The notes beneath the pieces were generated by a model. The model worked only from the letters and a program-made list of their open reading frames with translations. It was not told where the DNA came from and ran no database searches. Both the position numbers and the translations under genes were made by a program. From CAVQYV01 sp963718295 [NCBI: uncultured Methylomirabilota bacterium] (GTDB taxonomy: Bacteria > Methylomirabilota > Methylomirabilia > CAVQYV01), in the NCBI GenBank assembly GCA_963718295.1, contig CAVQYV010000001.1, positions 1 through 64,000 of the forward strand: 64,000 nucleotides of DNA. Direction: 5' to 3'. Below, piece after piece: positions 1-44,304 of this stretch; positions within the stretch are counted from its first letter, which is position 1, and the number at the start of each line of letters is the position of its first letter.

Positions 1-2
1 TC

Positions 3-506
<504 letters not shown>

Positions 507-768
507 GGAAGGAAAAGTGATTGGGCAGAAATTCGCTCTTCCTCTTCGCTGGAAAGGAGAGGAAAGGGGGGGGAGCTGTTTCCAGCCTGGGAGCGAGAGG
601 GATCGCGCGCGCGAGAGGGAGGGAGCGAGAGGGAGAGAAAAGAGAGAGAAAAGAGAGAGGTCGTGAAAGTTTTTTGAGTAATTTTTTCCACTGTTTTATT
701 CGGTTTTCGAATTCTTCCTTCTTTCTCGTTCTCTTTCTCTTCGGTCCCTCTCCCCTCGAAGGAGGAGA

Positions 769-1877
<1,109 letters not shown>

Positions 1878-2012
1878 AAACGAGAGAGCGAGAGGGAAAA
1901 GAGGAGGAGAGAAAAGAGAAAAGAACTGTGACAAAAATGGAAACGAAAAGAAAGGAAAAGAACGAAAAAATGCACCCCCTCCCCCCCCCAAAAAAAAACC
2001 TTACATCAACAT

Positions 2013-3614
2013 CTACCGCCGCCGTACCGCGAGCGACACCCCCGGGGGCAGCTCCCCCTCCATCGCCAGCGCCGCCTCCCCCCCCGAGGAGGCGAGGGGG
2101 AAGTCGTCAGAGACGACGACCCAGCGTGCGCGGGGGTGCAGCCTCAGGGCCCGCCAGAGCGCGCGGAGCGGCAGGCTGCTCTGATTCCCCGCTGCGGGCA
2201 GGCGGACGAGGCGCGCCCCGGAAGCGAGGAGGACTGGGGAGGTGCGGAGGCCGTCCCACAGGGACAGCGAGGGGGACGGGGAGGCGGAGGAGGAGGAGGA
2301 CCCGCCGCCCCCCTCTTTCTTCTTCTTCTTCTTCTCGTCCTTCTCGTTGTCCCCGCTGTCTCCGCCGCCGCCGCCGCCTCCGAGGCTCGACGGCGGCGCC
2401 TCGACCCTCGCGGCGAAGCTGCCGCCGTCGAACGGCGCGAGCCTGTCTCCGCGGGCCCAGGCGGCCAGCCCCGACGCGACGGGCGCCCAGAGCGCGGCCG
2501 CGGTGCCCCCCATTTCCTCTCCTCCCGCTCCCGCTCCCGCGCCGGCGGGCGCGCCGCCGCCGCGGTCCTCGGCGCACGGCGCGATCGAATTCGGAGAAGA
2601 GTTTGGGTTCCACTCGAAGGCGAAGTAAGAGCCGATGTTCCCGGAGCCGTGCGCCGACCACAGCGCGATGAGTTCGGGAGCGCCGTCGGCCCAGCGCCGG
2701 TGGGAGGAGAGCGAGGCGGCGGCGCGCGCCCTCTGAGCGCGGGTCACCGGAGGGAGCAGGCGCGGCGACGGAGGAGGAAAGGCGACGTCGACGGAAGGAG
2801 GAGAAGAAGGAGAAGAAGGAAAAACAGCCGCTGCTCTCCCTCCCTCTCCTCGTCCTTTCCCTCCGTCCACGGCCGCGGCGAGGACCTCCAGCCAGGGCCC
2901 CGGGACAGCCGGGTCCGCGCCGCGCACCCACGACGCCGCGGCGGCGCCGTCGAAGGCCAAGGACTGCAGCGCCGAGAGGTCGGCCGCCAGCGCCGCCCCG
3001 GCCGCCGACGCCGCGGCGGCCTCTCCTCCCCCTCCGCCGCCGCCCCCGAAGCCGTCCCCCCTCCCTCCTCCTCCCCCCAGCCCCCCGCGGGCGACGGAGC
3101 GCGCCAGGGGGTTGTTCCTCCCGACGACGACCTCGTCGAGCAGGAACCCCCTCCAGCCCGAGGGGGCGCCGGAGGAGGAGGAGGGCGGCCCGCCGCCAGC
3201 GCCGCCGCGAGCGCCGCCCCGGCCGACGAGGCCGCGCCGTCGTTGCGGCCGCCCGGGCTCGCCACCGCGCGGAGGAGGGCGAGGGCCGCGGCCGCCGGGG
3301 AGTCGGCCGCGTCGGCCAAGAGGTCCCGCAGGAGGATGAGGCGGCCCGCGGCGAGCAGGAGCTCGCGGGGCGGCGGCGAGGAGGGGGACGACGAGGACGG
3401 GGACCCCCCCGGGAAGAGGGCGAGGGGGCGCCCCCTCCGCCGCCGCCGCCGTCGCCGTCGTTTCTTCCGCGGCTTCCGCCGAGGAGGTGAAAGCCGATGG
3501 GCGGGGGGGCGCAGGAGGCGCCGCGCGCGGCCGCCGGCGGCGGTCGTCGGCGGCTGCGGAGCCGGCCGGGAGTCCGGGGTCGGAGGCGACCGGCGGCGAT
3601 GGCGATTTCGGCAT
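2013..3614 (-). CDS. Unidentified Gly/Ala/Pro-rich eukaryotic reading frame
   Basis: This is a long open frame (533 codons) opposite FAM192A, which it meets tail to tail. The C-terminal two thirds look like real protein, with hydrophobic, non-repetitive stretches such as SALQSLAFDG, WADGAPELIALWSAHG and ARWVVVSDDFPLASSG, broken by poly-Gly, poly-Lys and poly-Ser loops. The N-terminal 150 residues look like a shifted frame. A neighbouring minus frame over about 3230-3370 gives a convincing Ala/Leu-rich helix (RELLLAAGRLILLRDLLADA), so a frameshift or splice is probable there. No family is recognised. GC-rich DNA makes long spurious ORFs, so confidence is modest. Confidence 0.35.
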   Translation of the reverse strand: MPKSPSPPVASDPGLPAGSAAADDRRRRPRAAPPAPPRPSAFTSSAEAAEETTATAAAAEGAPPRPLPGGVPVLVVPLLAAAPRAPARRGPPHPPAGPLGRRGRLPGGRGPRPPPRGGEPGRPQRRRGLVGRGGARGGAGGGPPSSSSGAPSGWRGFLLDEVVVGRNNPLARSVARGGLGGGGGRGDGFGGGGGGGGEAAAASAAGAALAADLSALQSLAFDGAAAASWVRGADPAVPGPWLEVLAAAVDGGKGRGEGGRAAAVFPSSPSSPPSVDVAFPPPSPRLLPPVTRAQRARAAASLSSHRRWADGAPELIALWSAHGSGNIGSYFAFEWNPNSSPNSIAPCAEDRGGGAPAGAGAGAGGEEMGGTAAALWAPVASGLAAWARGDRLAPFDGGSFAARVEAPPSSLGGGGGGGDSGDNEKDEKKKKKKEGGGGSSSSSASPSPSLSLWDGLRTSPVLLASGARLVRLPAAGNQSSLPLRALWRALRLHPRARWVVVSDDFPLASSGGEAALAMEGELPPGVSLAVRRR

Positions 3615-3938
3615 CCCGGGAGCTCCGTCACCGCCGGCGCCGTAGTCGGTGGCCTTCCGGCCGCGCAGTGGAGCCGTGGCCTCGCCGAGAGAGAGCTGCG
3701 ACAGGGGGCTACCCTTTTACACGCCGGCGGCATCGACAGAGGCATGGGGCGAGGTAAGGTCGGGAAGGGAAAAAGAGAGACGAACCAGGAGACGCAATCT
3801 GGCTGCGACTGGGTTTTTTTTTTTTCCGTTGGCGTCTCAAGTGAGTCGCCGAGCCATTCCGTGCTTTTTTTTTCTTTGTTGCTCCCTCGCAGCGTTTTCC
3901 TTCCTCCGCATCTCTCTCTCCTCCCTTCCAACAGCATC
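3615..3938. other. Eukaryotic intergenic stretch with poly-pyrimidine tracts
   Basis: No convincing coding sequence is seen here. The stretch contains T-runs at about 3813-3827 and 3865-3873 and a CT-rich tract leading to the ATG at 3939. It probably serves as the promoter and 5' leader region of the gene starting at 3939, and possibly of the minus-strand frame ending its 5' side near 3614. Confidence 0.4.
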
Positions 3939-4333
3939 ATGCTCGGCCCCCTCCGCGCCGCCCTGCGCGGCGCGGGTGTTCGCTCAGCTGCGAGCCCCGC
4001 TGCTGCGACCCGACGCGGCTTCGCGGCCGGTGAGTTTGCTTGAGAAAAGCAATTTGGTCGCCCTCGACGAGCACCGAGCCGCATGGGTTTTTCTGTGCTT
4101 TCCTTGTTCTGTTTTTGTTTGCAGGAGGCGAATGTCCTCCCGCCAATCTTGCTCCAGGATTTGGGCTCGAGACTTCCTCTTGGCCGAGAGGGGGTCGAAG
4201 GGAAAAGCGAACAAAGGAGGAGAAAGAGAGAAAAGCTTTTCTTTAATTTCAAGCGACGGCTCTTTTCTTCCTCAGTCTCACCCAAACTCCAATCCCTCTT
4301 ATCTTCAACCTCGAACCTCATTCTCGGAAGATA
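3939..4333 (+). CDS. Mitochondrial-presequence first exon of an unidentified eukaryotic gene
   Basis: ATG 3939 opens MLGPLRAALRGAGVRSAASP and continues with ATRRGFAA. This Arg-rich amphipathic leader without acidic residues ends in a typical RGFA presequence cleavage motif. A consensus donor GTGAGT follows at 4030. Two acceptors are possible: TTTGCAG ending at 4124, or CTTCCTCAG ending at 4274. Using the second keeps the frame (exon phase 1) and adds SPKLQSLLSSTSNLILGR up to about 4331. The gene is then cut by the join to bacterial DNA, so its product cannot be named. Confidence 0.45.
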
Positions 4334-4340
4334 ACTTGGC
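4275..4340. other. Junction between eukaryotic and bacterial DNA
   Basis: Left of this interval are spliced eukaryotic genes; right of it is a bacterial operon. The last eukaryotic signal is a CTTCCTCAG acceptor at 4274. From about 4331 a frame ending at TGA 4390-4392 reads like the tail of a bacterial gene (SEDNLAEVAGQ...), three bases before the TTG start of the Wzz-like gene. The exact breakpoint cannot be fixed by eye. No transposon end or repeat is visible at the join. Confidence 0.8.
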
Positions 4341-4395
4341 TGAAGTCGCAGGACAGGCCGAACAGGGCCAGAGCTCGACGTATGGGGGGTGACCA

Positions 4396-20179: not shown

Positions 20180-20881
20180 TCACCTCACCAGATATAAGAG
20201 ATAAACCCCTCCCAGGATCACCAGGGATCCGCACACCTTTTTGACGATCGCAGGCCCCTTCGATTTCTCGTTCCAATTCAGATATCGCTGTACCAGCTCG
20301 GTACTCGTGCCTGCAGCGACGATCACCGAGCAGTGGCCCAGCCCATAGGCGAGTAAGAGCAGGATCCCGTAAGGGAGATTGGTGTCCGCCAGGCGGAAAG
20401 TGATGCCCAGCATGGGCGCCATGTAAGCAAAGGTACAGGGACCCAGGGCAATACCGAATGCGAGGCCCAGAAACAGCGCCGCCAGCAATCCCCTTCTTTG
20501 CATTTTGGCCTGACCCGGACCCGACCAGGGCATGGGAATGAACCCCCACAGATGTAACCCCACCAGAAAGAAAATTCCAGCTACCACGTAGTTCCCTATG
20601 CCTCCGATATCCCCCAACATTCGTCCCAACGAGGCAGTGAGGGCGCCGATCAAAGCGATCGTGACCAGGATGCCTCCGGCGAAGAGGGTGGAAATCAAGA
20701 ATGCTCTCCGGGTACTGATGCGCCCCTGGGCGCCGATAAAACCCACAATCAGGGGAATGCTCGCCAGATGGCAGGGGCTGAGCAGGATGCTCAAGATCCC
20801 CCACACGAAAGAGGCTCCCAACGCCAGGGAAGTAGAGCCTTCCAGGGCCTGGGTCAAAGCGGAGAGGATTTGCGTTATCAT
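20180..20881 (-). CDS. CcdA/DsbD-like transmembrane thiol-electron transporter
   Basis: CcdA proteins pass reducing equivalents from cytoplasmic thioredoxin to extracytoplasmic thiol proteins through a pair of membrane cysteines. The 233 residues hold about six helices, and the paired motifs are LLSPCHLASIPLIVGFI near residue 35 and ALGPCTFAYMAPMLGI near residue 150, each with the Pro-Cys characteristic of the family. It is the last gene of a long minus-strand run, and its ATG overlaps the TGA of the thioredoxin fusion upstream (TGATG at 20879-20883). It probably keeps the neighbouring secreted thioredoxin-like proteins reduced. Confidence 0.88.
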   Translation of the reverse strand: MITQILSALTQALEGSTSLALGASFVWGILSILLSPCHLASIPLIVGFIGAQGRISTRRAFLISTLFAGGILVTIALIGALTASLGRMLGDIGGIGNYVVAGIFFLVGLHLWGFIPMPWSGPGQAKMQRRGLLAALFLGLAFGIALGPCTFAYMAPMLGITFRLADTNLPYGILLLLAYGLGHCSVIVAAGTSTELVQRYLNWNEKSKGPAIVKKVCGSLVILGGVYLLYLVR

Positions 20882-21834
20882 CAGTTAACCCCTATTTCGG
20901 CAAGCTTCTTTTCGATCTCTGCCTGTGCGTAAAATCCGGTGTGGCGAAAGATCTCCTTGCCGCTCCGATCGAAGAAGACCTGGATGGGAATCGTCTGGAT
21001 GCCGAACCGAGCCGCCAGGATTTGTTCCTTGCCCACATGGACGAAAAGGACATTGAGTTTTCCCCGATATTTGTTCTTGAGAGATTCGAGGATTGGAGTC
21101 ATCATGTCGCAGGGTCGGCATCCGGTCGATCCGAAGTCGACCAGGGTGGGGATTCCGGAGGAGCGGGCCTGATCCACCGGGTTGTCCCGGGCAAGGGTAT
21201 ATTGCTTTTGGGTCCATTCCGCACTTACGCCGATGGATAACCGTTGCCCCAGGCTTCGCAAATATTCGCCGATGACTTGCTGTTGCTTCTCTTGTAGAAG
21301 ATAGGCTTGGAGGCCGGACTTCAGGTTGGTGAAGGTCTCCCCACCAAACAAACCTTGGTTCTTTTCGTAGAAATCCTTCGTTTCCTCATCTGTCACCGTG
21401 ACTCCCTGAGTCAAGGATTGCAGGAACCGCTGCAGGAGATCGCTTTCCTCCTGAGGGCTCAAATCTCCCTGGTCCACTTCAAGACTCCGTCGGGCCTCTT
21501 TGAGCAATAACTTTGGGGTCACGACTTGCTCCAATAGAAAGAAGCCGTTCCTTTTCAGTTGCTCCTGCATCCCCGGGGGAGCTTTTTGGAGTTCCAATTC
21601 CAGATCCCGTGCAGTGATTTCCAACCCCTCTACCTGGAGCAGAAGCTCTGGGGGAAGATCCTTTAGTTGAGCAAGCTGTAAAGGGCTTGAGGCCAGGTCC
21701 CCGTAAACTTCGCCTACCGTCTTTCCGCCCTCGGTCTCCGCTGCCACTGCGGCCCAATCAGTCCTTGGGCTTGTCAGGAGACAAAGGGCGAGGAGCAAGG
21801 CCGTCCCTAACAACTTGCGAGTGCGATGCATCAT
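20881..21834 (-). CDS. Secreted SurA/PPIase-like N-domain fused to thioredoxin
   Basis: After a signal peptide (LLGTALLLALCLLTSPR...) the first two thirds resemble the helical chaperone domain of SurA/PpiC proteins (PPELLLQVEGLEITARDLE, then QVVTPKLLLKEARR). The last 110 residues are a thioredoxin fold with redox motif GCRPCDMMTP and the cis-Pro block RFGIQTIPIQVFF. The PPIase catalytic domain itself is absent, so the protein is a chaperone-thioredoxin hybrid. ATG 21834 is preceded by AAGGAGGT at ideal spacing; the frame extends further upstream without a good site. It is coupled to CcdA, its likely electron donor. Confidence 0.8.
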   Translation of the reverse strand: MMHRTRKLLGTALLLALCLLTSPRTDWAAVAAETEGGKTVGEVYGDLASSPLQLAQLKDLPPELLLQVEGLEITARDLELELQKAPPGMQEQLKRNGFFLLEQVVTPKLLLKEARRSLEVDQGDLSPQEESDLLQRFLQSLTQGVTVTDEETKDFYEKNQGLFGGETFTNLKSGLQAYLLQEKQQQVIGEYLRSLGQRLSIGVSAEWTQKQYTLARDNPVDQARSSGIPTLVDFGSTGCRPCDMMTPILESLKNKYRGKLNVLFVHVGKEQILAARFGIQTIPIQVFFDRSGKEIFRHTGFYAQAEIEKKLAEIGVN

Positions 21835-21880
21835 GCAGACCTCCTTCTGATTCGTGATCCAAATCACCAGACAGGGCAAA

Positions 21881-22111
21881 TCACGAGATGATTCTCTTGA
21901 TCTCCTCCACGGAAAGGACCTTTCCGGAACCCTTGACCTGACCATCTATGGCCAGGCCCGGGGTGAACATCACCCCGAATTTCATGATCTCCTTGATATC
22001 GGTTACCTTCTCCACCTCAGCAGAAATCCCCAACTCTTGGATCGCCTGCTCGGCGTTAGCGGTCAATTGTTTGCATTTTGGACATCCGGTCCCCAGGATC
22101 TGAATCTTCAT
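21881..22111 (-). CDS. Redox-active disulfide protein (MTH895/thioredoxin_3 family)
   Basis: A 76-residue minimal thioredoxin fold beginning MKIQILGTGCPKCKQLTANA, with active site CPKC and the cis-Pro block GVMFTPGLAIDG. Such small proteins are recurrently encoded beside ArsP-type permeases and ArsR regulators. Its ATG overlaps the stop of the upstream membrane thioredoxin as ATGA (22108-22111), showing translational coupling and fixing the true frame of that damaged gene. Confidence 0.88.
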   Translation of the reverse strand: MKIQILGTGCPKCKQLTANAEQAIQELGISAEVEKVTDIKEIMKFGVMFTPGLAIDGQVKGSGKVLSVEEIKRIIS

Positions 22112-22602
22112 TTCTTCACCCCCATTTGGCTCAATACTTTCACGATCGAGGCCTTGTCCATGAAACCTTCGTGACGATAAACGGTCTTTCCCTTGGATCG
22201 ATGAAGATCTGGGTGGGGATCAGATATATCCCAAACTGCCTCATCAGGTCTCGATATTGATCCATCTCCAGGATCTTGACCAGAAGCTTTCCATCATATT
22301 CCCGGGCGACCTCATCGAGGACAGGCTTCATCATCTTACAAGGGATGCATACCCCGCGTCCAAAGTCCAGGAGCATAGGGAGATTCTTGGGATTCTCGAT
22401 GCCTTTGATCTTGGGAGAATCTGCCCCATTTGCTTCTTGCGGGCGATGATCAAAGAGAGGAACCTCCACCGCCATGGATCCGAAAAGGAGGGCCAAGATG
22501 GCTATTCCTCCCAGCACCGTAATCCTCCACAACCGGCGTCCGAAACCGATGCTCCCTTTCAGCCCCTCCGGGCCCTGAATTCCTTTCTGCCGAACCTTTC
22601 AT
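22108..22602 (-). CDS. Membrane-anchored thioredoxin, two apparent frameshifts
   Basis: The gene starts at ATG 22602 behind a strong AAGGAGGAGAATAG site. Correcting one base near 22595 joins the start to a membrane anchor (ITVLGGIAILALLFGSMA) and a thioredoxin domain with active site GVCIPCKMM and cis-Pro block GIYLIPTQIFIDP. A second one-base loss near 22192 must be corrected to give KGKTVYRHEGFMDK, then SIVKVLSQMGVKK and the TGA at 22108-22110 that overlaps the next gene. The coupling to intact neighbours suggests sequencing indels rather than decay. Predicted role: extracytoplasmic thiol reductase. Confidence 0.75.
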
Positions 22603-22691: not shown

Positions 22692-23622
22692 TTATTTGGC
22701 CCCAGGAAAGGGAAATCCTTGTGCCGCCAAGAGACTGGCAATCTCCGGATCATCCGGAATCTTCTTGTCCAGGGGAGTGATCCGGGAATCATGAGAAAGG
22801 ACTTTCCCATTCGGGCCAATCTCCAAATACAGCTCACCCGAGGTGCGTCCCCTGGGTCCCAGCCGATAAGATGAGTGCCCCATTGTACTCGAGGGGTGGA
22901 TCGATCATTCCCATTCCCCACGCTAATATGATAGCGGTGATTCCAGGGGCCTTTTCTGCCAGCTCGCCGGCCTCGTCTAAGGTCAGATGACCGAGAACAA
23001 TCACCAACTGGCATTCGGCGTTGAAGCTCGGGAATCAGCCGCGAAGCCAGCTCCAGGTAGTCTTGTACCACTATGGGTTTGTCCTCGGCCGTATGACGGG
23101 GTGCAATGAAAAGGTTGGACATCAGCCCAAGCGACTGCCACCCGCACCCCTCCCAGATCTTTGATGATGTAAGGAATGGCAAATGGGGTCTCCTCTTCCG
23201 CCAGCATTACATTGGCGCAGAGGAGCGGGATGCCACTCCTCTCCATCTGCGTTCTGATAAACTCCTGGCCAAATATGAGCTCCCGTGCTCCGAGGTTGTA
23301 AGCGCCATAACCCATCCTCGCCATGGCCTCAATGGAAAGCCCTGCCTTCTTTTGTTCTATCTGCACAGAACGGCCAAAGACATCCCCCGCCTCCAATAGA
23401 AGGACCCAATTGGTCTCCTGGCGCACCTCCTTGATCCGCGTGGCCCGCCGGGCCAGACCGCCCAGCTTGGTTCTGCTTCAGCCACAGGGATGGATCTCGC
23501 CATGGGCCTCCCCGCTATAGAGGATGGCAATCCGCCCAGGTGGCCTATTCCCACCAGCCATGGCAGGTTGAAGGGGTAGGAAGAGCAGCGTCATTACTGC
23601 AAAAAGCAATCCATCTTGTCAT
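22692..23622 (-). CDS. Secreted 5'-nucleotidase-like metallophosphatase with in-frame TGA (candidate selenoprotein)
   Basis: This is an N-terminal metallophosphatase of the UshA/5'-nucleotidase type. From ATG 23622 it reads as a signal peptide (MTRWIAFAVMTLLFLPLQPA, after dropping one T), then RIAILYSGEAHGEIHPCG, an in-frame TGA at 23480-23478, and SRTKLGGLARRATRIKEVR, with WVLLLEAGDVFG, YGAYNLGARELIFG and, much later, GELYLEIGPNGKVLSHDS. As I recall the family, the TGA sits at a conserved Cys (PCGC). A SECIS-like hairpin follows. Separately, about three one-base indels (near 23125, 23020 and 22840) break the rest of the frame and look like consensus errors. The start region is less certain than the core. 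Confidence 0.65.
23447..23480 (-). promoter_or_regulatory. Candidate bacterial SECIS element after in-frame TGA
   Basis: Reading the minus strand: TGA (23480-23478), 11 bases, stem GCTGGGC (23466-23460), loop GGTCTG, stem GCCCGGC (23453-23447). All seven stem pairs form (one G-U). The loop contains GGUCU starting 18 bases after the TGA. From memory, the SelB-binding hairpin of E. coli fdhF has GGUCU in its apical loop at the same 18-base distance. The reading frame continues through the TGA with family-conserved residues on both sides. Confidence 0.7.
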
Positions 23623-23646: not shown

Positions 23647-24408
23647 TTAATCCCCGCAGTCGCCTTGGGGAGCGGTCAATCCTTCCTGCCATTTCCGGAA
23701 AACCACTTTCCCTCGACAGCGAGGAATGGCCTTCTCCCTTAGATGAACTAAATTCTTCGTGATAGCAGGCAGGAGGTGGCCCGGGAATCCCATCGCCGCC
23801 TCTCCCTCCTCCAGATCCGTTGCCTCCCGGCAACCATAACATCCGTAGCTGAGATTGATCGTATCTTGCAGGAAGGGCAATACCGCCGAATCGACGCAGA
23901 TGGCCTGCAGAACCGCAGTGCTGGAAGATAGCCGACCCCCCGCAGCGTTCAGGTAGGCCAACGCCACCCACATCAGTTTCTCTACCGGCCCTTCCAACAG
24001 AACCACGTCCTGGAGGTCAGGGAATGAATCCAAAGGTCCGAGCAAGATCGCGGGGTATTTCCCCAGCTCCAGCCGAGGCATGCCCCGGATGGTGCGGGCT
24101 GCCTTGATTTCATCCTGAAAGATGCCGAAGCCTTTTAGCATCTCGCCACTTTCCAGCTTAGAGGGCAAGGGCTTGAAGCCCAGGGCGGAAGCCGCTGCCG
24201 GACAGGCGATGTCTTCCGCGGTGAGCAAGAGCCTCTCTCCCCGTCTGGCCCGCATCACTGCCTGGCAAAAGCGGTGCCCTTTCGCCCGTTCAGCTTCCTG
24301 CGCAGAGGCCAGATCTCGGAGGAAGTTCACGCCCACCGGATGAGATCTCAGGCCGGTAGCATCCCGCAGTATTCGGTCGTATTTTTGGATCTGTTCTGCG
24401 CTTTCCAT
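23647..24408 (-). CDS. DUF169 family protein A
   Basis: A 253-residue soluble protein. The opening LRDATGLRSHPVGVNFLRD and the central LGKYPAILLGPLDSFPDLQD are the typical conserved blocks of DUF169 (COG2043). Conserved cysteines occur in CQAVMRARRGERLLL, EDIACPAAASALGF and YGCYGCREATD, which may bind a metal or cluster. The biochemical function of the family is not known to me; it is common in anaerobes. It lies in the arsR-led operon between its paralogue and the metallophosphatase gene. The frame is intact, unlike several neighbours. Confidence 0.88.
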   Translation of the reverse strand: MESAEQIQKYDRILRDATGLRSHPVGVNFLRDLASAQEAERAKGHRFCQAVMRARRGERLLLTAEDIACPAAASALGFKPLPSKLESGEMLKGFGIFQDEIKAARTIRGMPRLELGKYPAILLGPLDSFPDLQDVVLLEGPVEKLMWVALAYLNAAGGRLSSSTAVLQAICVDSAVLPFLQDTINLSYGCYGCREATDLEEGEAAMGFPGHLLPAITKNLVHLREKAIPRCRGKVVFRKWQEGLTAPQGDCGD

Positions 24409-24478: not shown

Positions 24479-25228
24479 CTATTTCACCAAGTAATTGACG
24501 GGGATGGTGGGAGAGAGGAAGCCACTTACGATGGGAATCGGGAATTTCTTCGCTGCCTGCATCTCCTTCATGTTTTCCAGCATCTCTTCCACCACTGCGA
24601 AGGGAAAGCTGAAGATCAACTCGTGGTCCTGCATCAGTCCATAGCGTTTGGAACCTACGCAGGGCACGGTAAGATTGGGTTTCTGGGTCTGGTGCGCATA
24701 GACCACCCCGTAGGAGCAGACCGCCGAGCTCACCCCGTTGGTAAATTGGAGGGCCTCTCCCCGGGACCAGGCAAAGGCCTCGATCAGACCCAGAGCCTGG
24801 TGGGCATCCACCAGCAAGAGCAGGACGTGGGGTTCAAAGCCATCCAGAGGGCCGACCAATACCCCCTCGATGGATCCCAGGCCCAGCTTGGGCTTGGTCT
24901 CCATCAACGCCCGTGCGATCTCTGCATCCTTGGCGAACTGCGCTTGGTGATGTTCGACATCCTTCTCTCCCGGCTCCCGGAATCCCAGGATCATCTGGGC
25001 AGTGAAACATCCCATCTGATCTTTGGGGCAGGCAAGGGTCCATCCCCCATGGGCGGCCCCCTTCACCATCTGGCAAAGGGAGACCTTGGCAGAGGGGACG
25101 TTTCCCTTCGTCAAATCCTCTGCCTTTTCGCAGAGCCTTACTCCCACCGGATGAGTGCGGAGGCGAAGGGTCCTTTCCAGGTCTGCAGCTATTGTTTCGT
25201 ATCCATGGGCACACTCTTCAGTTCTCAT
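24479..25228 (-). CDS. DUF169 family protein B
   Basis: A 249-residue paralogue of the next DUF169 protein, with matching blocks LRLRTHPVGVRLCEKAEDL, CPKDQMGCFTAQMILGF, GLGSIEGVLVGPLDGFEP and QFTNGVSSAVCSYGVVYAHQ. The Cys positions near residues 52, 64, 69 and 160 are good candidates for ligand binding. Its ATG overlaps the stop of the upstream small thioredoxin-like gene by four bases (25225-25228), so the two are coupled. A tandem DUF169 pair suggests a heteromer or two substrates; that is inference. Confidence 0.88.
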   Translation of the reverse strand: MRTEECAHGYETIAADLERTLRLRTHPVGVRLCEKAEDLTKGNVPSAKVSLCQMVKGAAHGGWTLACPKDQMGCFTAQMILGFREPGEKDVEHHQAQFAKDAEIARALMETKPKLGLGSIEGVLVGPLDGFEPHVLLLLVDAHQALGLIEAFAWSRGEALQFTNGVSSAVCSYGVVYAHQTQKPNLTVPCVGSKRYGLMQDHELIFSFPFAVVEEMLENMKEMQAAKKFPIPIVSGFLSPTIPVNYLVK

Positions 25229-25479
25229 TGCTGGAGGCCACCTGCTTCCTCCTGGATGAGCTGCTTGACCTTCTCCAGCGAAGGAAGGGGCTTGCCATAG
25301 TGTTTCACCTTCTCGTCGATGACCAGTCCGGGGGTGGCAGGGATATAGCGCATGATCTCCTTCATATCATGGACATGCTCGACGTCCGCCCCAATACCGA
25401 GTTCCGCCAGGGCATTGAGGGTCATCTCATGCAGCTTGGTGCAAAAAGGACAGCCGGGACCCAAGACTTTGATCTTCAC
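25225..25479 (-). CDS. Small thioredoxin-like redox disulfide protein
   Basis: An 84-residue thioredoxin_3/MTH895-type protein. From GTG 25479, which follows AAAGGAGCTAAAA, it reads MKIKVLGPGCPFCTKLHEMT with active site CPFC, then VEHVHDMKEIMRYIPATPGL with the cis-Pro. The longer frame to 25524 overlaps the permease end and is unlikely. It is placed directly after the ArsP-like permease, the usual arrangement for this family, and is coupled to DUF169 B. Confidence 0.85.
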   Translation of the reverse strand: MKIKVLGPGCPFCTKLHEMTLNALAELGIGADVEHVHDMKEIMRYIPATPGLVIDEKVKHYGKPLPSLEKVKQLIQEEAGGLQQ

Positions 25480-25507
25480 TTTTAGCTCCTTTCGGTGATT
25501 GCTCAAG

Positions 25508-26660
25508 TTATCCCAGAATTCCAAAGAGCAGACCGGTGATAGTGGCCATGACCACCACCAGGCTCACATAGACCAGCATCTTCTTGGTTCCACGATGCTT
25601 CGGATGACGATCATGCTGGGCAGGCTCAAGGCTGGGCCGGCCAGAAGCAGGGTTAGGGCCGGTCCCTTTCCCATGCCTGAGCCCATGAGGCCCGGAGGAT
25701 GGGAACCTCGGTCAGGGTGGCAAAACATCAGGGCTCCGCTCACCGAGGCAAAGAGGTTGGCCCAGAGGGAATTGCCCCCCACCAGATGTTCTATGAAGCG
25801 GGCGGGGATGATGCCCGCATCGTTTCCGGGGCGACCCATCAAGAATCCCGCCACCAGGACCCCTCCCGAAGGAGACGCAGGATCGTTTAAAAAAATCCAA
25901 GTGGCCCCTACCCATTCCTTCAACTCCTCCTTGCTGAACCAGGACCGCGCATGAGTCCCAGACCGATCAGAAGGCCCCGGTCAGATACAGTGGACCGAAT
26001 AGATCGCCTCATAGAAGCCCACCGGGGTCGCCGGCTTGCCCAGGTGGCGAAGATCAGGATCAGCACCTGGAAGCATATAGAGGACCATCTTCCAGAGAGG
26101 ACGGCTGGGGGGATCGGTGCCGGCCATGGCCAACTCCCCATTGGCTGCTCTTTCCCGCTCCTCTTCCGGAAGAAGAATGCCATCAGGAGGCCGATAATAA
26201 CCGAGAAAACGACCGCCCCCACGGCCCGGCCTACTCCGATCTCCATGCCTAACACGCGGGCGGTCAGGATAATGGCCAAGACATTGATGGCTGGCCCGGA
26301 AAGAGGAAGGCCGAGGCGGGCCCCAGTCCGGCCCCCCGGGTGTAGATCCCGGCGAAGAGAGGGAGAACGGTGCAGGAGCAGACCGCCAGGATGGTCCCGG
26401 AGACGGAGGCCACGCTGTAAGCCAGGCCTTGATTGGCCCTCGGACCCAGATATTTCATCACCGAGGCCTGAGAGACGAAGACGGAGATCGCTCCGGCAAT
26501 GAGGAAGGCGGGAACCAGGCAGGTGAGGACTGGGCCCGGGCATACTCCTGGGGCATCAAGAAGGCTCCCTCTCGCCCTCACCCGGACCATTGGAAGGGCA
26601 CGAGGTAGGCGGCCAGGAAGGCTGAAAACAATCAATAACAACGTATATCGGCTCTTTCAT
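25508..26660 (-). CDS. ArsP-like permease (DUF318), frameshifted
   Basis: A multi-pass permease of the PF03773 family, which includes ArsP exporters of trivalent organoarsenicals. Recognisable segments lie in three frames: LVPAFLIAGAISVFVSQASV, SGTILAVCSCTVLPLFAGIY with the conserved CSC motif, SGPAINVLAIILTARVLGME, GVLVAGFLMGRPGNDAG, and a final helix VYVSLVVVMATITGLLFGIL ending at TAA 25508-25510. The start is ATG 26660 after GGAGGAAAGACCCAA. At least four one-base indels are needed, all in short homopolymers, so consensus error is more likely than a pseudogene. Substrate (arsenical or another metal compound) is inferred from the arsR/acr3 context. Confidence 0.75.
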
Positions 26661-27415
26661 TTGGGTCTTTCCTCCGCAGAGCCGAGGGCTTGTAAACTCA
26701 GTGATCAGCGAGGTTTCAGCCAGCGCCGCAACAAGTCGCTCATAAGCGTAGGGTACGCGGATGAACTCCCCCGCCAGCGGCCCCTCCTTGGGGAAACCGC
26801 TGGATCGATCAGGGCATAACAAGCCCGCCAGTCCCCATCTTTCGGTCGTCCGGCGCTCCCCACATTCACGAATGTCGTGGCCTCCACCTGGCGGACATAG
26901 GGGATATGGGTATGGCCGAATAGGATAGCCCGATAGGGGTGGTCGTGCGCGATACGGGCAAAGGCCGATCCCGGTCGATCTTCAAAGAGATACTCATTGA
27001 TGCGCCGCGGGCTGCCGTGAACGGCCAGGATTTCCCCTGCGGGCGTCGCCAAGAGAAACCGGTCCTCCAGGGTGCCCAGGAAGGCGCGCGTCTCGGCGGT
27101 GACGACTCCTTCTGTCCATTTGAGGGAAATCGCTCCCTCGAGGCGTTGCTCCTCGGTTTTATAGGCGCATCCACAGTCGCCGGTTGAAAATCCGATCCCT
27201 CGGCCGTAGTTTCCCATGATGGTGGGAATGGCGCGTTTGCGGAAAAGCGCTGCCATTTCGTTCGGGAATCGGGCCGTAGCCGACGAGATCGCCTAGAAAA
27301 AGAGCGATTTGGTACCCCCCTGCGCAATATGATGCGGTACCGCCTCCAGCGCCGGCAGGTTGGCATGGACATCGGAGAAGACGGCGAAGACCCCCTCAAC
27401 GATAAAGCGTCTCAC
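26660..27415 (-). CDS. Calcineurin-like metallophosphoesterase, frameshifted
   Basis: The gene starts at GTG 27415 with MRRFIVEGVFAVFSDVHANL, carrying the DxH metal motif. It continues with LFLGDLVGYGPIPNEMAALF (GDxxGYGP), IMGNYDR-like, AVHGSPRRINEYL and ILFGHTHIPYVR (GHTH). These are the five signature blocks of the YfcE/ApaH-like phosphoesterases. The frame must be corrected near 27315, near 27255 and near 26800, after which the C-terminus reads IRVPYAYERLVAALAE. The 3' boundary near 26660 is approximate because the frame runs towards the permease start. It sits between the radical SAM and permease genes. Confidence 0.75.
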
Positions 27416-28712: not shown

Positions 28713-29855
28713 CTATTCCTTTCGGGCGCTGGGGCCGCAAGCGCCTCCCGGCGAGCCACTGAGCGTTTCCGCTCCCGTGAAGAACCGGCGCTTGAAATAG
28801 AGGGATACGTTGACCAGGCCGATGAGCACCGGAACCTCTACCAGCGGCCCGATGACGGCTGCAAAGGCCGCTCCGGAGCCGATGCCAAAGACGGACACCG
28901 CAACCGCAATGGCCAGCTCAAAGTTGTTGGAGGCGGCAGTGAAGGCGAGGCTGGTGGTCTTCTCGTAGTCCGCACCCGCTTTCTTACCCATATAAAAGCT
29001 GACCAGGAACATGACCACAAAATAAATGAGCAGCGGGATGGCAATCCGGACCACATCCATTGGAATCTGCACGATCAGGTTACCCTTCAGGCTGAACATC
29101 ACTACGATAGTGAACAAGAGAGCAATCAGCGTGATCGGACTGATCCGGGGGATGAATTGGTTATGGTACCACTCCTTGCCTTTTGCCTTCACCAGGATCA
29201 GCCGGGTGAGCATCCCGGCGATGAAGGGAATCCCTAAGTAGATGAATACACTCTTGGCGATCTGGCCGATGGTCACGTTCACTACGCTCCCTCGCAGTCC
29301 GAAGAAGGGAGGCAGGATGGTAATAAATACCCAAGCATACACGCTATAAAAGAGGACCTGAAAGATGCTGTTGAAGGCCACTAACCCTGCGCAATACTCG
29401 CAGTCCCCGGCCGCCAGATCGTTCCAGACGATGACCATGGCAATACAGCGGGCCAATCCGATCATGATCAGGCCGGTCATATAGGCGGGATAGGAAGGAA
29501 GGAAGAGGATGGCCAGAAAGAACATCAGGATGGGACCCACGATCCAATTCTGGAGCAGCGAGAGACCCAGGATCTTCCAGTTACGGAAGACATCTCCCAG
29601 ATCTTCGTAGCGGACTTTCGCCAGCGGCGGATACATCATCAAGATCAGGCCAATGGCGATGGGGATATTGGTGGTATCCACCTGAAAGCGGTGGATGAAA
29701 CCCTCTACCCCGGGGATCAAATATCCGATCAGGACACCTCCCGCCATGGCCAGGAAGATCCATAGAGTCAGGAAGCGGTCAAGAAAAGAGAGCTTTTTGA
29801 GCACCGATCCCTCTGATCTGGCCGTGTTATCCCTGTTGACCGTCATTTCCTTCAT
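28713..29855 (-). CDS. acr3: ACR3-type arsenite efflux transporter
   Basis: Acr3 expels arsenite using the membrane potential. The 380 residues hold ten helices with family motifs: [58 protein letters not shown] with the essential Cys, and [20 protein letters not shown]. The C-terminal tail is Gly/Ser-rich and unremarkable. A good AGGAGG site precedes ATG 29855. It is the clearest functional anchor of the arsR-led operon and implies arsenite as a signal for the whole gene set. Confidence 0.93.
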
Positions 29856-30334: not shown

Positions 30335-30742
30335 CTACGGCATCCGCCTTTCCGCCGCGACCAGTTTACTCCCCGCCTCCAGGTCTGCCGGCTCTACCCT
30401 GCAACTCGATCGCATCCCCTTGCTCAGGGTATGCTCGAGTCGGCCCCGGTCTGTCTCAAACACCCATCCCTTCGACCATTCCCGGAGGATCTGAACCACG
30501 GAGGATGGCAGGTCATCCTTTTCCCACTCCTTCAGGGCGTAGATGATCCATTTCCCTTCCCGACGATCCACGACCAGGCCTGCAGCCTTGAGGATGCTGA
30601 GTTGATGAGAAATCCGGGGCTGAGGCATCTGCAGGGCATCCATGAGCTCGCAGACGCAAAGCTCCCCTTGGAACAGTAAATTCAAGATCCTGAGGCGGGT
30701 CTCATCAGACAGGGCTTTGAAGAATGTAACGGCTGTTTGCAT
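30335..30742 (-). CDS. arsR: ArsR/SmtB-family metalloregulator
   Basis: A winged-helix repressor of 135 residues, beginning MQTAVTFFKALSDETRLRIL. The recognition helix region is QMPQPRISHQLSILKAAGLV, and the wing reads VDRREGKWIIYALK. Cysteines in GELCVCELM form the classical alpha-3 arsenite site (CVCEL), so As(III) or Sb(III) binding is likely. A long C-terminal extension with a further Cys is present. It is the first gene of the minus-strand operon running to 20,180 and is preceded by an AT-rich dyad. Confidence 0.92.
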   Translation of the reverse strand: MQTAVTFFKALSDETRLRILNLLFQGELCVCELMDALQMPQPRISHQLSILKAAGLVVDRREGKWIIYALKEWEKDDLPSSVVQILREWSKGWVFETDRGRLEHTLSKGMRSSCRVEPADLEAGSKLVAAERRMP

Positions 30743-42825: not shown

Positions 42826-44046
42826 CTATTTTCCCTTGTGCACTCTCATTTCATGGGCATCTCGGCTCATCTCCACCCAATCCTTTTTGAGCTCTGCCAG
42901 GCCATACCAGGTCACATAGTCCGGATTGTTGTGGAAAGCACCCTGGAAAGCACGCATCCGGTGCTCCAAGAACATGACATAAAGCTTCTGCTCGATAGGG
43001 GTGATCGCATCATAGAAGGTCAGAATATCCGGATAGGCAAGCTTTCCGGGCTGAGGCTGGATGATCCCCTCCTGATAAAGTCCGGCAACGAGGTCGATTC
43101 CTCGTGCCATCATGCGATCCGCCTCCTTGATCATGGCATCCGCATTCTCCAGGTTCACTCGGGCGAACCCCCCACTGTGGCACCGGGTGCAGGTCTTGAG
43201 CATCCGATCCCGCTCCTTTTGCCACTCCTCCTGGCTCAGGCGGGCCACCTTTCCCGCCTTGACCACTTCCAGGCGAGGGGTGGGATTGCCCGCGGGATCC
43301 AGCACCTGAAGACCCTTGAGGATGGTGGCCCGATATCCCATCCATTCTGCATCCGGCTCTGGCAGGCGTAGTGCCAGGAAGCCCCAGGCCGTCATCACCT
43401 TATGATTGCCATCCTCCATGTGGCAGGTCTGGCAGGTGGGAGCCCTTCCACTCGCAGGGTCGGTGAAATAGATGGTACCGTGCTTGGAGGAGGACCACAT
43501 CTCCCATTGGGGATGATCGAATCCCATATGGCACATTCGGCAAGCCTGGGGGCTCTGGGCCTCAGCCTGGGAGAACTTGTGCCGGGTATGGCAGGAAATG
43601 CAGGCCATCCCGTAGCGGTATTCCCCTTCGGCCTTTGCCTCCCGCAGCCCAATCCGGTGACACCCCCCGCATCCTTTCAAGCCCTCGATGAAGGGATGGG
43701 GCTGAAAGCCGGTGGTGGGCATGGCATCCATGGCGATCCAGGCCAGGGAGTGTTTTCCGTCCGAATATTGCTTGAACTGCTGCCCATGGCAACCGGCACA
43801 CCGGTCAGGGGTTGGCAGCTCCGCTTTGCTCGAATCTTTGGCGGTTTGGTGGGCGGAGCCGTGGCAATCTTCGCAGCCCATGGAGGGGCTCATCTTGCTG
43901 GATGTCCACTCCTTCACAATTCCGGGAGTGACCTTCTCATGGCAGATGACGCACCTCGATTTCTCCTCGCTCCCCTTGGCCGCCCCTACCCAGAGGCACA
44001 GCACCAGAAAGCAAAACATCACCCGCAGCACCCGCTTCGCCTTCAT
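42826..44046 (-). CDS. Octaheme cytochrome c, hydroxylamine-oxidoreductase-like
   Basis: A secreted 406-residue protein with signal peptide (VMFCFLVLCLWVGAAKG) and eight CxxCH sites: CVICH, CEDCH, CAGCH, CGGCH, CISCH, CRMCH, CQTCH and CTRCH. The C-terminal helical region (FHNNPDYVTWYGLAELKKDW) and heme spacing resemble the HAO/octaheme family, which in anaerobes usually reduces nitrite or hydroxylamine. The P460-crosslinking Tyr of true HAO could not be located with certainty. Start ATG 44046 has AAGGAGGAGGCG. It heads an operon with glutaredoxin, FTR and redoxin. Confidence 0.8.
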   Translation of the reverse strand: MKAKRVLRVMFCFLVLCLWVGAAKGSEEKSRCVICHEKVTPGIVKEWTSSKMSPSMGCEDCHGSAHQTAKDSSKAELPTPDRCAGCHGQQFKQYSDGKHSLAWIAMDAMPTTGFQPHPFIEGLKGCGGCHRIGLREAKAEGEYRYGMACISCHTRHKFSQAEAQSPQACRMCHMGFDHPQWEMWSSSKHGTIYFTDPASGRAPTCQTCHMEDGNHKVMTAWGFLALRLPEPDAEWMGYRATILKGLQVLDPAGNPTPRLEVVKAGKVARLSQEEWQKERDRMLKTCTRCHSGGFARVNLENADAMIKEADRMMARGIDLVAGLYQEGIIQPQPGKLAYPDILTFYDAITPIEQKLYVMFLEHRMRAFQGAFHNNPDYVTWYGLAELKKDWVEMSRDAHEMRVHKGK

Positions 44047-44304
44047 CGCCTCCTCCTTTCCAATCCTCCCAAACAAACAGGCCCCCATGCCCGATGAGTG
44101 GGCAAGAGGGGCCTCCATCCTTGAGGTACCAGATTGATCAATGCGCTCACCGATGCGCTCAAATCGCACCCCCGAATTGTGGGCGAGGTTAATTCACTGC
44201 TAACACTGCCTGGTCACGCATTTACTTCTACCGCATTTTCAAGGCCCCGTCAAGCAGATTTAGCCAAACACCGTGCGTAACGGTGGGGCACTGAGACGCG
44301 GCCC

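What the first reader, a model, noticed from the sequence alone, without database searches (positions are those of the whole stretch)
23447..23480. Candidate selenoprotein: metallophosphatase with in-frame UGA and a SECIS-like hairpin
Seen: on the minus strand the frame is continuous from HGEIHPCG, through TGA, into SRTKLGGLARRATRI. The TGA falls where relatives, as I recall them, have the second Cys of PCGC. Eighteen bases after the TGA a hairpin (GCTGGGC / GCCCGGC, seven pairs) exposes GGUCU in its loop. Known (from memory): E. coli fdhF SECIS has GGUCU in its apical loop 18 bases after UGA, bound by SelB. Inference: the protein carries a Cys-Gly-Sec redox motif. A 5'-nucleotidase-like metallophosphatase with a Cys-Gly-Sec motif inside an arsR-led thiol-redox operon is, as far as I know, undescribed. 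The gene has separate one-base indels, so the TGA could also be a base error.
Basis: partly seen in the sequence, partly recalled or inferred. Interest (0 to 1): 0.9.

Follow-up and report, generated by a model that had tools for sequence, protein, structure and literature searches.

The report
Selenocysteine gene of a known family
The in-frame stop codon is almost certainly read as selenocysteine, as in many relatives of this already described protein family, but this copy sits, unusually, among arsenic-resistance and thiol-redox genes, and the broken reading frame around it may be sequence error.

Summary
On the minus strand an in-frame TGA (23480-23478) follows HGEIHPCG. A 7-bp hairpin (23466-23447) exposes GGUCU 18 nt downstream; of 2069 TGA triplets scanned in the window it is the only one with GGTCT at +18 and a stem of at least 5 bp. 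Relatives from a pattern scan carry TGA or a Cys codon here: 65 TGA, 27 TGT, 22 TGC of 114 parsed. GGTCT at +18 occurs in 54 of 62 TGA members and 4 of 49 Cys members. The stem covaries in Sec members (0 of 5000 permutations) but not in Cys members (1421 of 5000). Recoding to Sec is well supported. 'Undescribed' is wrong: UshA-like CxU selenoproteins are in print since 2008, NCBIfam NF041198. 'Metallophosphatase' holds for the fold only: the catalytic Asn is absent in 129 of 129 relatives, and many members carry a tetraheme tail. Possibly new is the setting: an ars/thioredoxin/DsbD cluster, whose UshA slot holds Cys or Sec forms in related bacteria. The window's own genome, and so its Sec machinery, is not held.

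The parts
23478..23480 (-). In-frame TGA read as selenocysteine (PCG-U; Cys-Gly-Sec motif)
   Evidence: Frame continues on both sides; aligned column is TGA/TGC/TGT in 114 of 114 parsed relatives, a set selected by a pattern that allows only these codons.
23447..23466 (-). bSECIS hairpin: 7-bp stem, loop GGUCUG, 18 nt after UGA; also encodes LGGLAR
22692..23622 (-). UshA-like (seleno)protein gene, short form without heme tail; frame broken at several points, pieces used apart
   Evidence: NF041198 3e-31 for the first piece; piecewise hits to relatives
30335..30742 (-). ArsR-type regulator at the head of the cluster
   Evidence: tblastn to ArsR-like genes beside UshA-like genes in related genomes; no family model was run on it, name from resemblance
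28713..29855 (-). ACR3/BASS-type transporter (SBF)
   Evidence: Pfam SBF 3e-61; 71-75% to ACR3 copies beside UshA-like genes in L178, L179, L181, L182, L186
27434..28759 (-). Radical SAM/SPASM protein
   Evidence: Pfam
26705..27256 (-). Calcineurin-like phosphoesterase, perhaps frame-broken (match begins at profile position 50)
   Evidence: Pfam Metallophos_2; break not tested
25564..26641 (-). ArsP permease in three frame-shifted pieces
   Evidence: Pfam ArsP_1 on all three pieces
25225..25524 (-). ArsE/MTH895-type thioredoxin-like protein
   Evidence: TIGR00412 76.5 bits, cut-off 62
24479..25228 (-). DUF169 protein, first copy
   Evidence: Pfam DUF169 6.5e-47
23647..24408 (-). DUF169 protein, second copy
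   Evidence: Pfam DUF169 2.6e-49
22114..22532 (-). Thioredoxin-like protein, frame broken near 22190
   Evidence: Pfam Thioredoxin
21881..22111 (-). Second ArsE/MTH895-type thioredoxin-like protein
   Evidence: TIGR00412 1.3e-32
20881..21945 (-). Protein with C-terminal thioredoxin domain
   Evidence: Pfam Thioredoxin; same type next to UshA-like genes in L172, L173
20180..20881 (-). DsbD/CcdA-type transmembrane protein (ArsG-like)
   Evidence: Pfam DsbD_TM 9e-11; ArsG model 1.1e-9, below its cut-off

Best explanation
The gene encodes a short, probably exported UshA-like PCGU selenoprotein of a Desulfobacterota-related bacterium. The UGA is decoded as Sec by SelB through an fdhF-like hairpin whose GGUCU loop lies 18 nt downstream and doubles as the codons for the conserved LGGL. 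The protein keeps the 5'-nucleotidase fold but has lost the phosphatase active site. The Cys-Gly-Sec pair stands in the loop after the first strand, next to the former metal site. Inferred step: Cys-Gly-Sec is a redox or metalloid-binding pair, re-reduced by the DsbD-like/thioredoxin genes of the same cluster (in other members by a fused tetraheme cytochrome), and serves handling of arsenic or related compounds outside the cytoplasm.
For: Codon column: 65 TGA, 27 TGT, 22 TGC of 114 parsed relatives (L052 among the TGA is judged a chance match). GGTCT at +18: 54/62 TGA versus 4/49 Cys members. Stem covariation in Sec members only. selB over cut-off: 7/8, 10/10, 11/12 TGA-carrying versus 3/14 Cys-carrying genomes. 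tRNA-Sec over gathering score 10/10 (controls 5/14). Family NF041198. Fold: 5'-nucleotidases at E about 1e-20, mean pLDDT 82, on relative L132. Catalytic Asn kept in 0/129. Four heme motifs in 36/67 CxU and 31/34 CxC members with complete 3' ends. ars/thiol neighbours of some UshA-like genes in related genomes.
Against: The window genome is not held, so its Sec machinery is unseen. The gene is frame-broken and could be a pseudogene. The window is an outlier (highest identity 40% in the tree set, placement support 98/38). Two TGA-carrying genomes lack selB over cut-off (G006; G418), perhaps because they are incomplete. Three of 14 Cys-carrying genomes have selB. Of 23 CxxU copies read with flanks, 18 had none of the window cluster's genes within 8 kb, so the ars link is not general. 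Redox function and electron donor are inference; no substrate is known.
Confidence: 0.85

Rival explanations
1. The TGA is a base error for a Cys codon in a Cys-type UshA-like gene.
For: The gene and two neighbours carry frame breaks, so the sequence may be error-prone. Cys members exist, among them the nearest by identity, L089 with TGT at 40%.
Against: The hairpin is of the Sec kind: the strict form occurs in 52/62 TGA but 4/49 Cys members. The breaks are length changes, whereas this would need a substitution at exactly the Sec column.
Confidence: 0.04
2. The gene is a pseudogene of a selenoprotein and no longer makes protein.
For: At least three frame changes within about 930 bases. Broken neighbours (ArsP, a thioredoxin gene) could mean a decaying cluster.
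Against: SECIS and motif are intact. ACR3, both DUF169 genes and the DsbD-type gene in the same cluster align without a break. ArsP pieces are still 44-76% identical to intact copies in L178 and L180. Long open frames at 4-20 kb.
Confidence: 0.15
3. Cys-Gly-Sec is mainly a metalloid/metal ligand (a binding or sensing site) rather than a redox catalyst.
For: Loss of the phosphatase site; ArsR/ArsP/ACR3 neighbours. A 2026 review suggests metal-binding roles for some other Sec residues (PMC13188914, passages).
Against: Fused tetraheme cytochrome in many members and thioredoxin/DsbD neighbours point to electron transfer.
Confidence: 0.3

Closest known systems
UshA-like (seleno)protein, NCBIfam NF041198 UshA_like_PCGU (COG0737, CxU; GOS survey 2008, PMC2398784)
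   Same: PCGU motif, fold, LGGLARR stretch, SECIS position
   Different: Window copy lacks the tetraheme tail of the longer members and lies in an ars/thioredoxin cluster; at most about 42% identity to the relatives compared
UshA-like selenoprotein family 2, NF049981 (CxxU)
   Same: Short heme-less form; same fold; one Sec CxxU copy (L197) lies in an ars cluster like the window's
   Different: Motif CxxU instead of CGU; window piece scores 48.8 bits versus cut-off 140
5'-nucleotidase UshA / CD73
   Same: Fold (on relative L132) and the GGxARRAT stretch
   Different: Asn and His of the GNH motif: 0 of 129 members keep both; window has Ala-Arg
ArsEFG organoarsenical resistance (Chen 2019; seen only as a cited title)
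   Same: ArsE-type thioredoxin-like and ArsG-like membrane proteins
   Different: Different gene set; ArsG model below cut-off; UshA-like protein not part of it as far as I recall

Membership tests
Bacterial selenoprotein | In-frame TGA aligned with conserved Cys/Sec | tested here: met
Bacterial selenoprotein | bSECIS: loop 3-9 nt, stem 4-16 bp, G in first two loop positions, 16-37 nt spacing, energy at most -7.5 (rules as printed in PMC13188914) | tested here: met
   6-nt loop, 7 bp, GGU, 18 nt, -13.9 kcal/mol
Bacterial selenoprotein | selA/selB/selC/selD in the same genome | not testable with these tools
   Window genome not held; selB and tRNA-Sec found in relatives; selA and selD not searched
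Bacterial selenoprotein | Selenium incorporated in the protein | not testable with these tools
   needs 75Se labelling or mass spectrometry
NF041198 UshA_like_PCGU | PCGU/PCGC motif | tested here: met
   PCGU at 23480
NF041198 UshA_like_PCGU | Curated cut-off of 275 bits | tested here: inconclusive
   108.6 bits for the 205-aa first piece only; plainly PCGU relatives L132 (260.6) and L057 (230.8) also miss it
NF041198 UshA_like_PCGU | C-terminal tetraheme domain of the longer members | tested here: not met
   No CxxCH seen after the motif in the window gene's frames; absent also in 29 of 67 CxU members with complete 3' ends, so not defining
5'-nucleotidase / metallophosphatase enzyme | Asp-x-His and Asn-His metal/catalytic residues | tested here: not met
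   Window has E-A-H and A-R, but keeps the Asp of the GD motif; Asn kept in 0 of 129 relatives
NF049981 UshA-like family 2 | CxxU motif | tested here: not met
   Window motif is C-G-U

The most novel reading that the evidence does not exclude
In one Desulfobacterota class, ars operons reserve a slot for a dead-phosphatase redox protein. The slot is filled interchangeably by a Cys form (CxTC), a CxxU selenoprotein (L197) or, in the window, a CGU selenoprotein. It would be a Sec-dependent branch of arsenic or organoarsenical handling fed by a DsbD-thioredoxin relay, parallel to heme-fused members fed by cytochromes.
Probability: 0.3. Interest if true: 0.6.

Novelty: new member of a known kind. 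Interest (0 to 1): 0.4.

Why it matters
The selenoprotein family is known, but I saw no function given for it in the passages read. Three observations narrow it down: the catalytic Asn is gone in all 129 members examined, many members carry a tetraheme cytochrome tail, and some heme-less members (a Cys lineage, one CxxU copy and the window's) lie in ars clusters beside thioredoxin/DsbD genes. Together they make a redox or metalloid role directly testable. The SECIS comparison (Sec versus Cys members of one family) is also a clean case of RNA-level selection laid over protein-coding sequence.

Tried and rejected
Own-genome search for sel genes: no genome is held for the window. A direct protein scan of genome contigs with the window protein found no confirmed relative among 494 pattern matches. 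Viral contigs gave no confirmed relative. Plasmid tblastn hit 182 records; only the two best (Photobacterium) were translated, and these are nucleotidases without the PCG motif; a third (L003) was fetched as a reference; the rest were not examined. Rfam at gathering score: 0 matches in the window. ARAGORN: no tRNA in the window. Folding energy as evidence for the SECIS: rejected, since z-scores are ordinary and 45-nt MFE does not separate Sec from Cys members (p = 0.72); position, loop and stem do. Membership in the ars-operon CxTC lineage: rejected, as the tree does not put the window there. Tree placement is weak and long-branched.

Rows dropped before counts: L066 and L075 (ambiguous bases; not parsed, both read TGA); L052 (chance match) and two members with under 60 downstream bases; identical SECIS stretches (leaving 59 Sec members); proteins without a motif or under 290 residues in the ligand count; fragments under 120-130 residues in the tree. 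In one search, which used similarity instead, a first crude motif count over 146 rows gave 71 PCGU, 41 PCGC, 11 other CG motifs (some of them artefacts upstream of the site) and 23 without a CG motif (CPxU and CxTC forms among them).

Full report
OBSERVATION. On the minus strand the frame ...GRIAILYSGEAHGEIHPCG-TGA-SRTKLGGLARRATRIKEV... is as described, with TGA at 23480-23478. The hairpin GCUGGGC-GGUCUG-GCCCGGC occupies 23466-23447; 18 bases separate the UGA from the loop. It meets the published bSECIS rules (PMC13188914, passages read). Among 2069 TGA triplets scanned on both strands of the window, this is the only one with GGTCT at +18 and a stem of at least 5 bp. Folding energy by itself is not unusual.

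KNOWN FAMILY. The first piece of the protein hits NCBIfam NF041198 'UshA_like_PCGU, UshA-like (seleno)protein' at 3e-31 (108.6 bits, below the cut-off of 275). Clear PCGU relatives also miss that cut-off: L132 260.6 and L057 230.8 bits. Ordinary nucleotidases of Photobacterium reach 95 and 91 bits, but over some 310 profile positions against about 150 for the window piece. The GOS survey of 2008 lists 76 Sec and 92 Cys UshA-like CxU sequences (PMC2398784, passages). Reviews of 2022 and 2026 list the family (PMC9312934, PMC13188914, passages).

SEC/CYS ALTERNATION. Of these 114 could be parsed: 65 TGA, 27 TGT, 22 TGC. One TGA row (L052) is a chance match; the two unparsed rows also read TGA at the column. 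In a sample of 395 genomes of the phylum of L067's genome, 139 carry a homologue at E <= 1e-10; most of the matches listed (a capped list) hold exactly one TGA. On a tree of 144 rows the labels Sec-CxU and Cys-CxC need 12 and 7 changes; well-supported branches force at least 4 and 3.

SECIS SIGNAL TRACKS SEC. GGTCT stands at +18 in 54 of 62 TGA members but 4 of 49 Cys members; with a stem of at least 5 bp, 52 of 62 versus 4 of 49. The general bSECIS rules are met by 42 of 62 versus 8 of 49. Best-hairpin energy differs (p = 1.6e-12), while 45-nt MFE does not (p = 0.72). Among 59 distinct Sec members the mean contiguous stem, counted to 6 bp, is 5.71. Re-dealing the 3' halves gives 4.51 on average and never reaches it in 5000 trials. 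Among 49 Cys members it is 1.41 versus 1.33, with 1421 of 5000 reaching it. The same bases encode the conserved LGGL, so protein coding and SECIS are laid over each other. Relatedness of the members was not corrected for.

MACHINERY. No whole genome is held for the window. Its GuaA-like protein is 73-76% identical over nearly its whole length to that of eight of 198 sampled genomes (a ninth, G065, matches 78% over part). selB over cut-off: 7 of 8 genomes of TGA relatives; 10 of 10 close genomes, namely those eight plus G154 and G214, the two best UshA-like hits (G214's best copy is a Cys form, LCGC); 11 of 12 TGA-carrying against 3 of 14 Cys-carrying genomes. The first two sets share G004. tRNA-Sec is over the gathering score in 10 of 10, but also in 5 of 14 controls, so it is weaker evidence. 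selA and selD were not searched.

WHAT THE PROTEIN IS. AlphaFold2 of relative L132 (45-row alignment, mean pLDDT 81.9) matches solved 5'-nucleotidases at E about 1e-20. The phosphatase site is eroded: at the Asn of the GNH motif 0 of 129 relatives have Asn; Asp-x-His is complete in 4 of 129; none has all six residues checked, though the Asp of the GD motif stays in 67 of 129. The window has Glu-Ala-His, the GD Asp, and Ala-Arg at these places. Invariant columns in 45 relatives are G44, P48, C49, C51 (the Cys/Sec position), G57 and G58 of L132; C49 and C51 lie in the loop after strand 32-39, beside the first metal site by sequence. Of members with a complete 3' end, 36 of 67 CxU and 31 of 34 CxC have four CxxCH heme motifs after the fold; 0 of 24 CxxU/CxxC members do. 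Pfam finds Cytochrome_C554 in 30 of 45. The window gene is of the short, heme-less kind. Its start reads like an exported protein's signal sequence (my reading; no predictor was run).

SETTING. On the same strand lie, in order, ArsR-type regulator, a small DnaJ-like frame (my reading), ACR3-type transporter, radical SAM protein, phosphoesterase, ArsP, ArsE-type thioredoxin, two DUF169 proteins, the UshA-like gene, a thioredoxin, a second ArsE-type thioredoxin, a thioredoxin-domain protein and a DsbD-type membrane protein. In 40 regions read from related genomes, at least one gene of this set lies within 8 kb of the CxTC-type UshA copies in all such regions but L190, and of the related copy in L178. 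One CxxU selenoprotein copy has ArsR, ArsP, ArsE and thioredoxin genes on its strand (L197). ACR3 lies near CxxU copies in L181, L182 and L205 (L205 with ArsR), and L189 has radical SAM and DUF169 hits on the other strand. The remaining 18 of 23 CxxU copies have none of the set, some of them in regions of only 3 kb. Of ten heme-bearing copies nine have none; the one in L197 is near them only because it adjoins that cluster. The regions were chosen partly for such hits, so these are not unbiased rates. The window's protein does not group with the CxTC lineage: the slot seems to have been filled independently by Cys and Sec forms.

INFERENCE. Cys-Gly-Sec in a dead phosphatase pocket, with cytochrome tails in some members and thioredoxin/DsbD neighbours in others, suggests an extracytoplasmic redox or metalloid-binding site kept reduced by different donors. 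The arsenic link rests on neighbourhood alone. I found no paper describing this setting or the heme fusion for the UshA-like selenoproteins in the listings of searches of the held open-access library; of the papers only passages were read, and the original ArsEFG paper was not read.

QUALITY. The UshA-like gene changes frame several times, and so do ArsP and one thioredoxin gene, while ACR3, both DUF169 genes and the DsbD-type gene align without a break. ArsP's first piece is 65-76% and its other pieces 44-52% identical to copies in L178 and L180, so sequence error is likelier than old decay but not shown. Bases 1 to about 4390 have 68% G+C and look unlike the rest, so the record may be chimeric.

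VERDICT. Real, correctly spotted Sec codon; new member of a known selenoprotein family in an interesting, possibly unreported setting.

Noticed in passing
window 1-4390: G+C 68% (over 80% at about 3000-3600), low-complexity reading frames and a different character from the bacterial remainder; probably a chimeric or contaminated record, perhaps eukaryotic (my reading).
   Followed up: partly
window 25564-26641, 22114-22532, 26705-27399: ArsP and a thioredoxin gene are frame-broken, and perhaps a phosphoesterase gene (two overlapping frames), while neighbours align whole.
   Followed up: partly
L193 (G089:C20) and L194 (G053:C36): CxxU UshA-like genes lie about 6 kb from a tRNA-Sec gene, and in G053 also near a second tRNA-Sec match and a selB.
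   Followed up: no
L145, L151, L158, L160, L197:6937-8136 and others: PCPxU forms have GGTCT at +21 in ten of the 16 listed, at +18 in L197, and not within 60 bases in five: the SECIS spacing seems to shift with the motif.
   Followed up: partly
L181, L182: Two UshA-like genes, one CxxU and one CxTC, flank an ACR3 gene on the same strand.
   Followed up: no
window 42826-44169: Multiheme (CxxCH-rich) cytochrome gene, about 20 kb from the UshA-like gene; no link shown.
   Followed up: no
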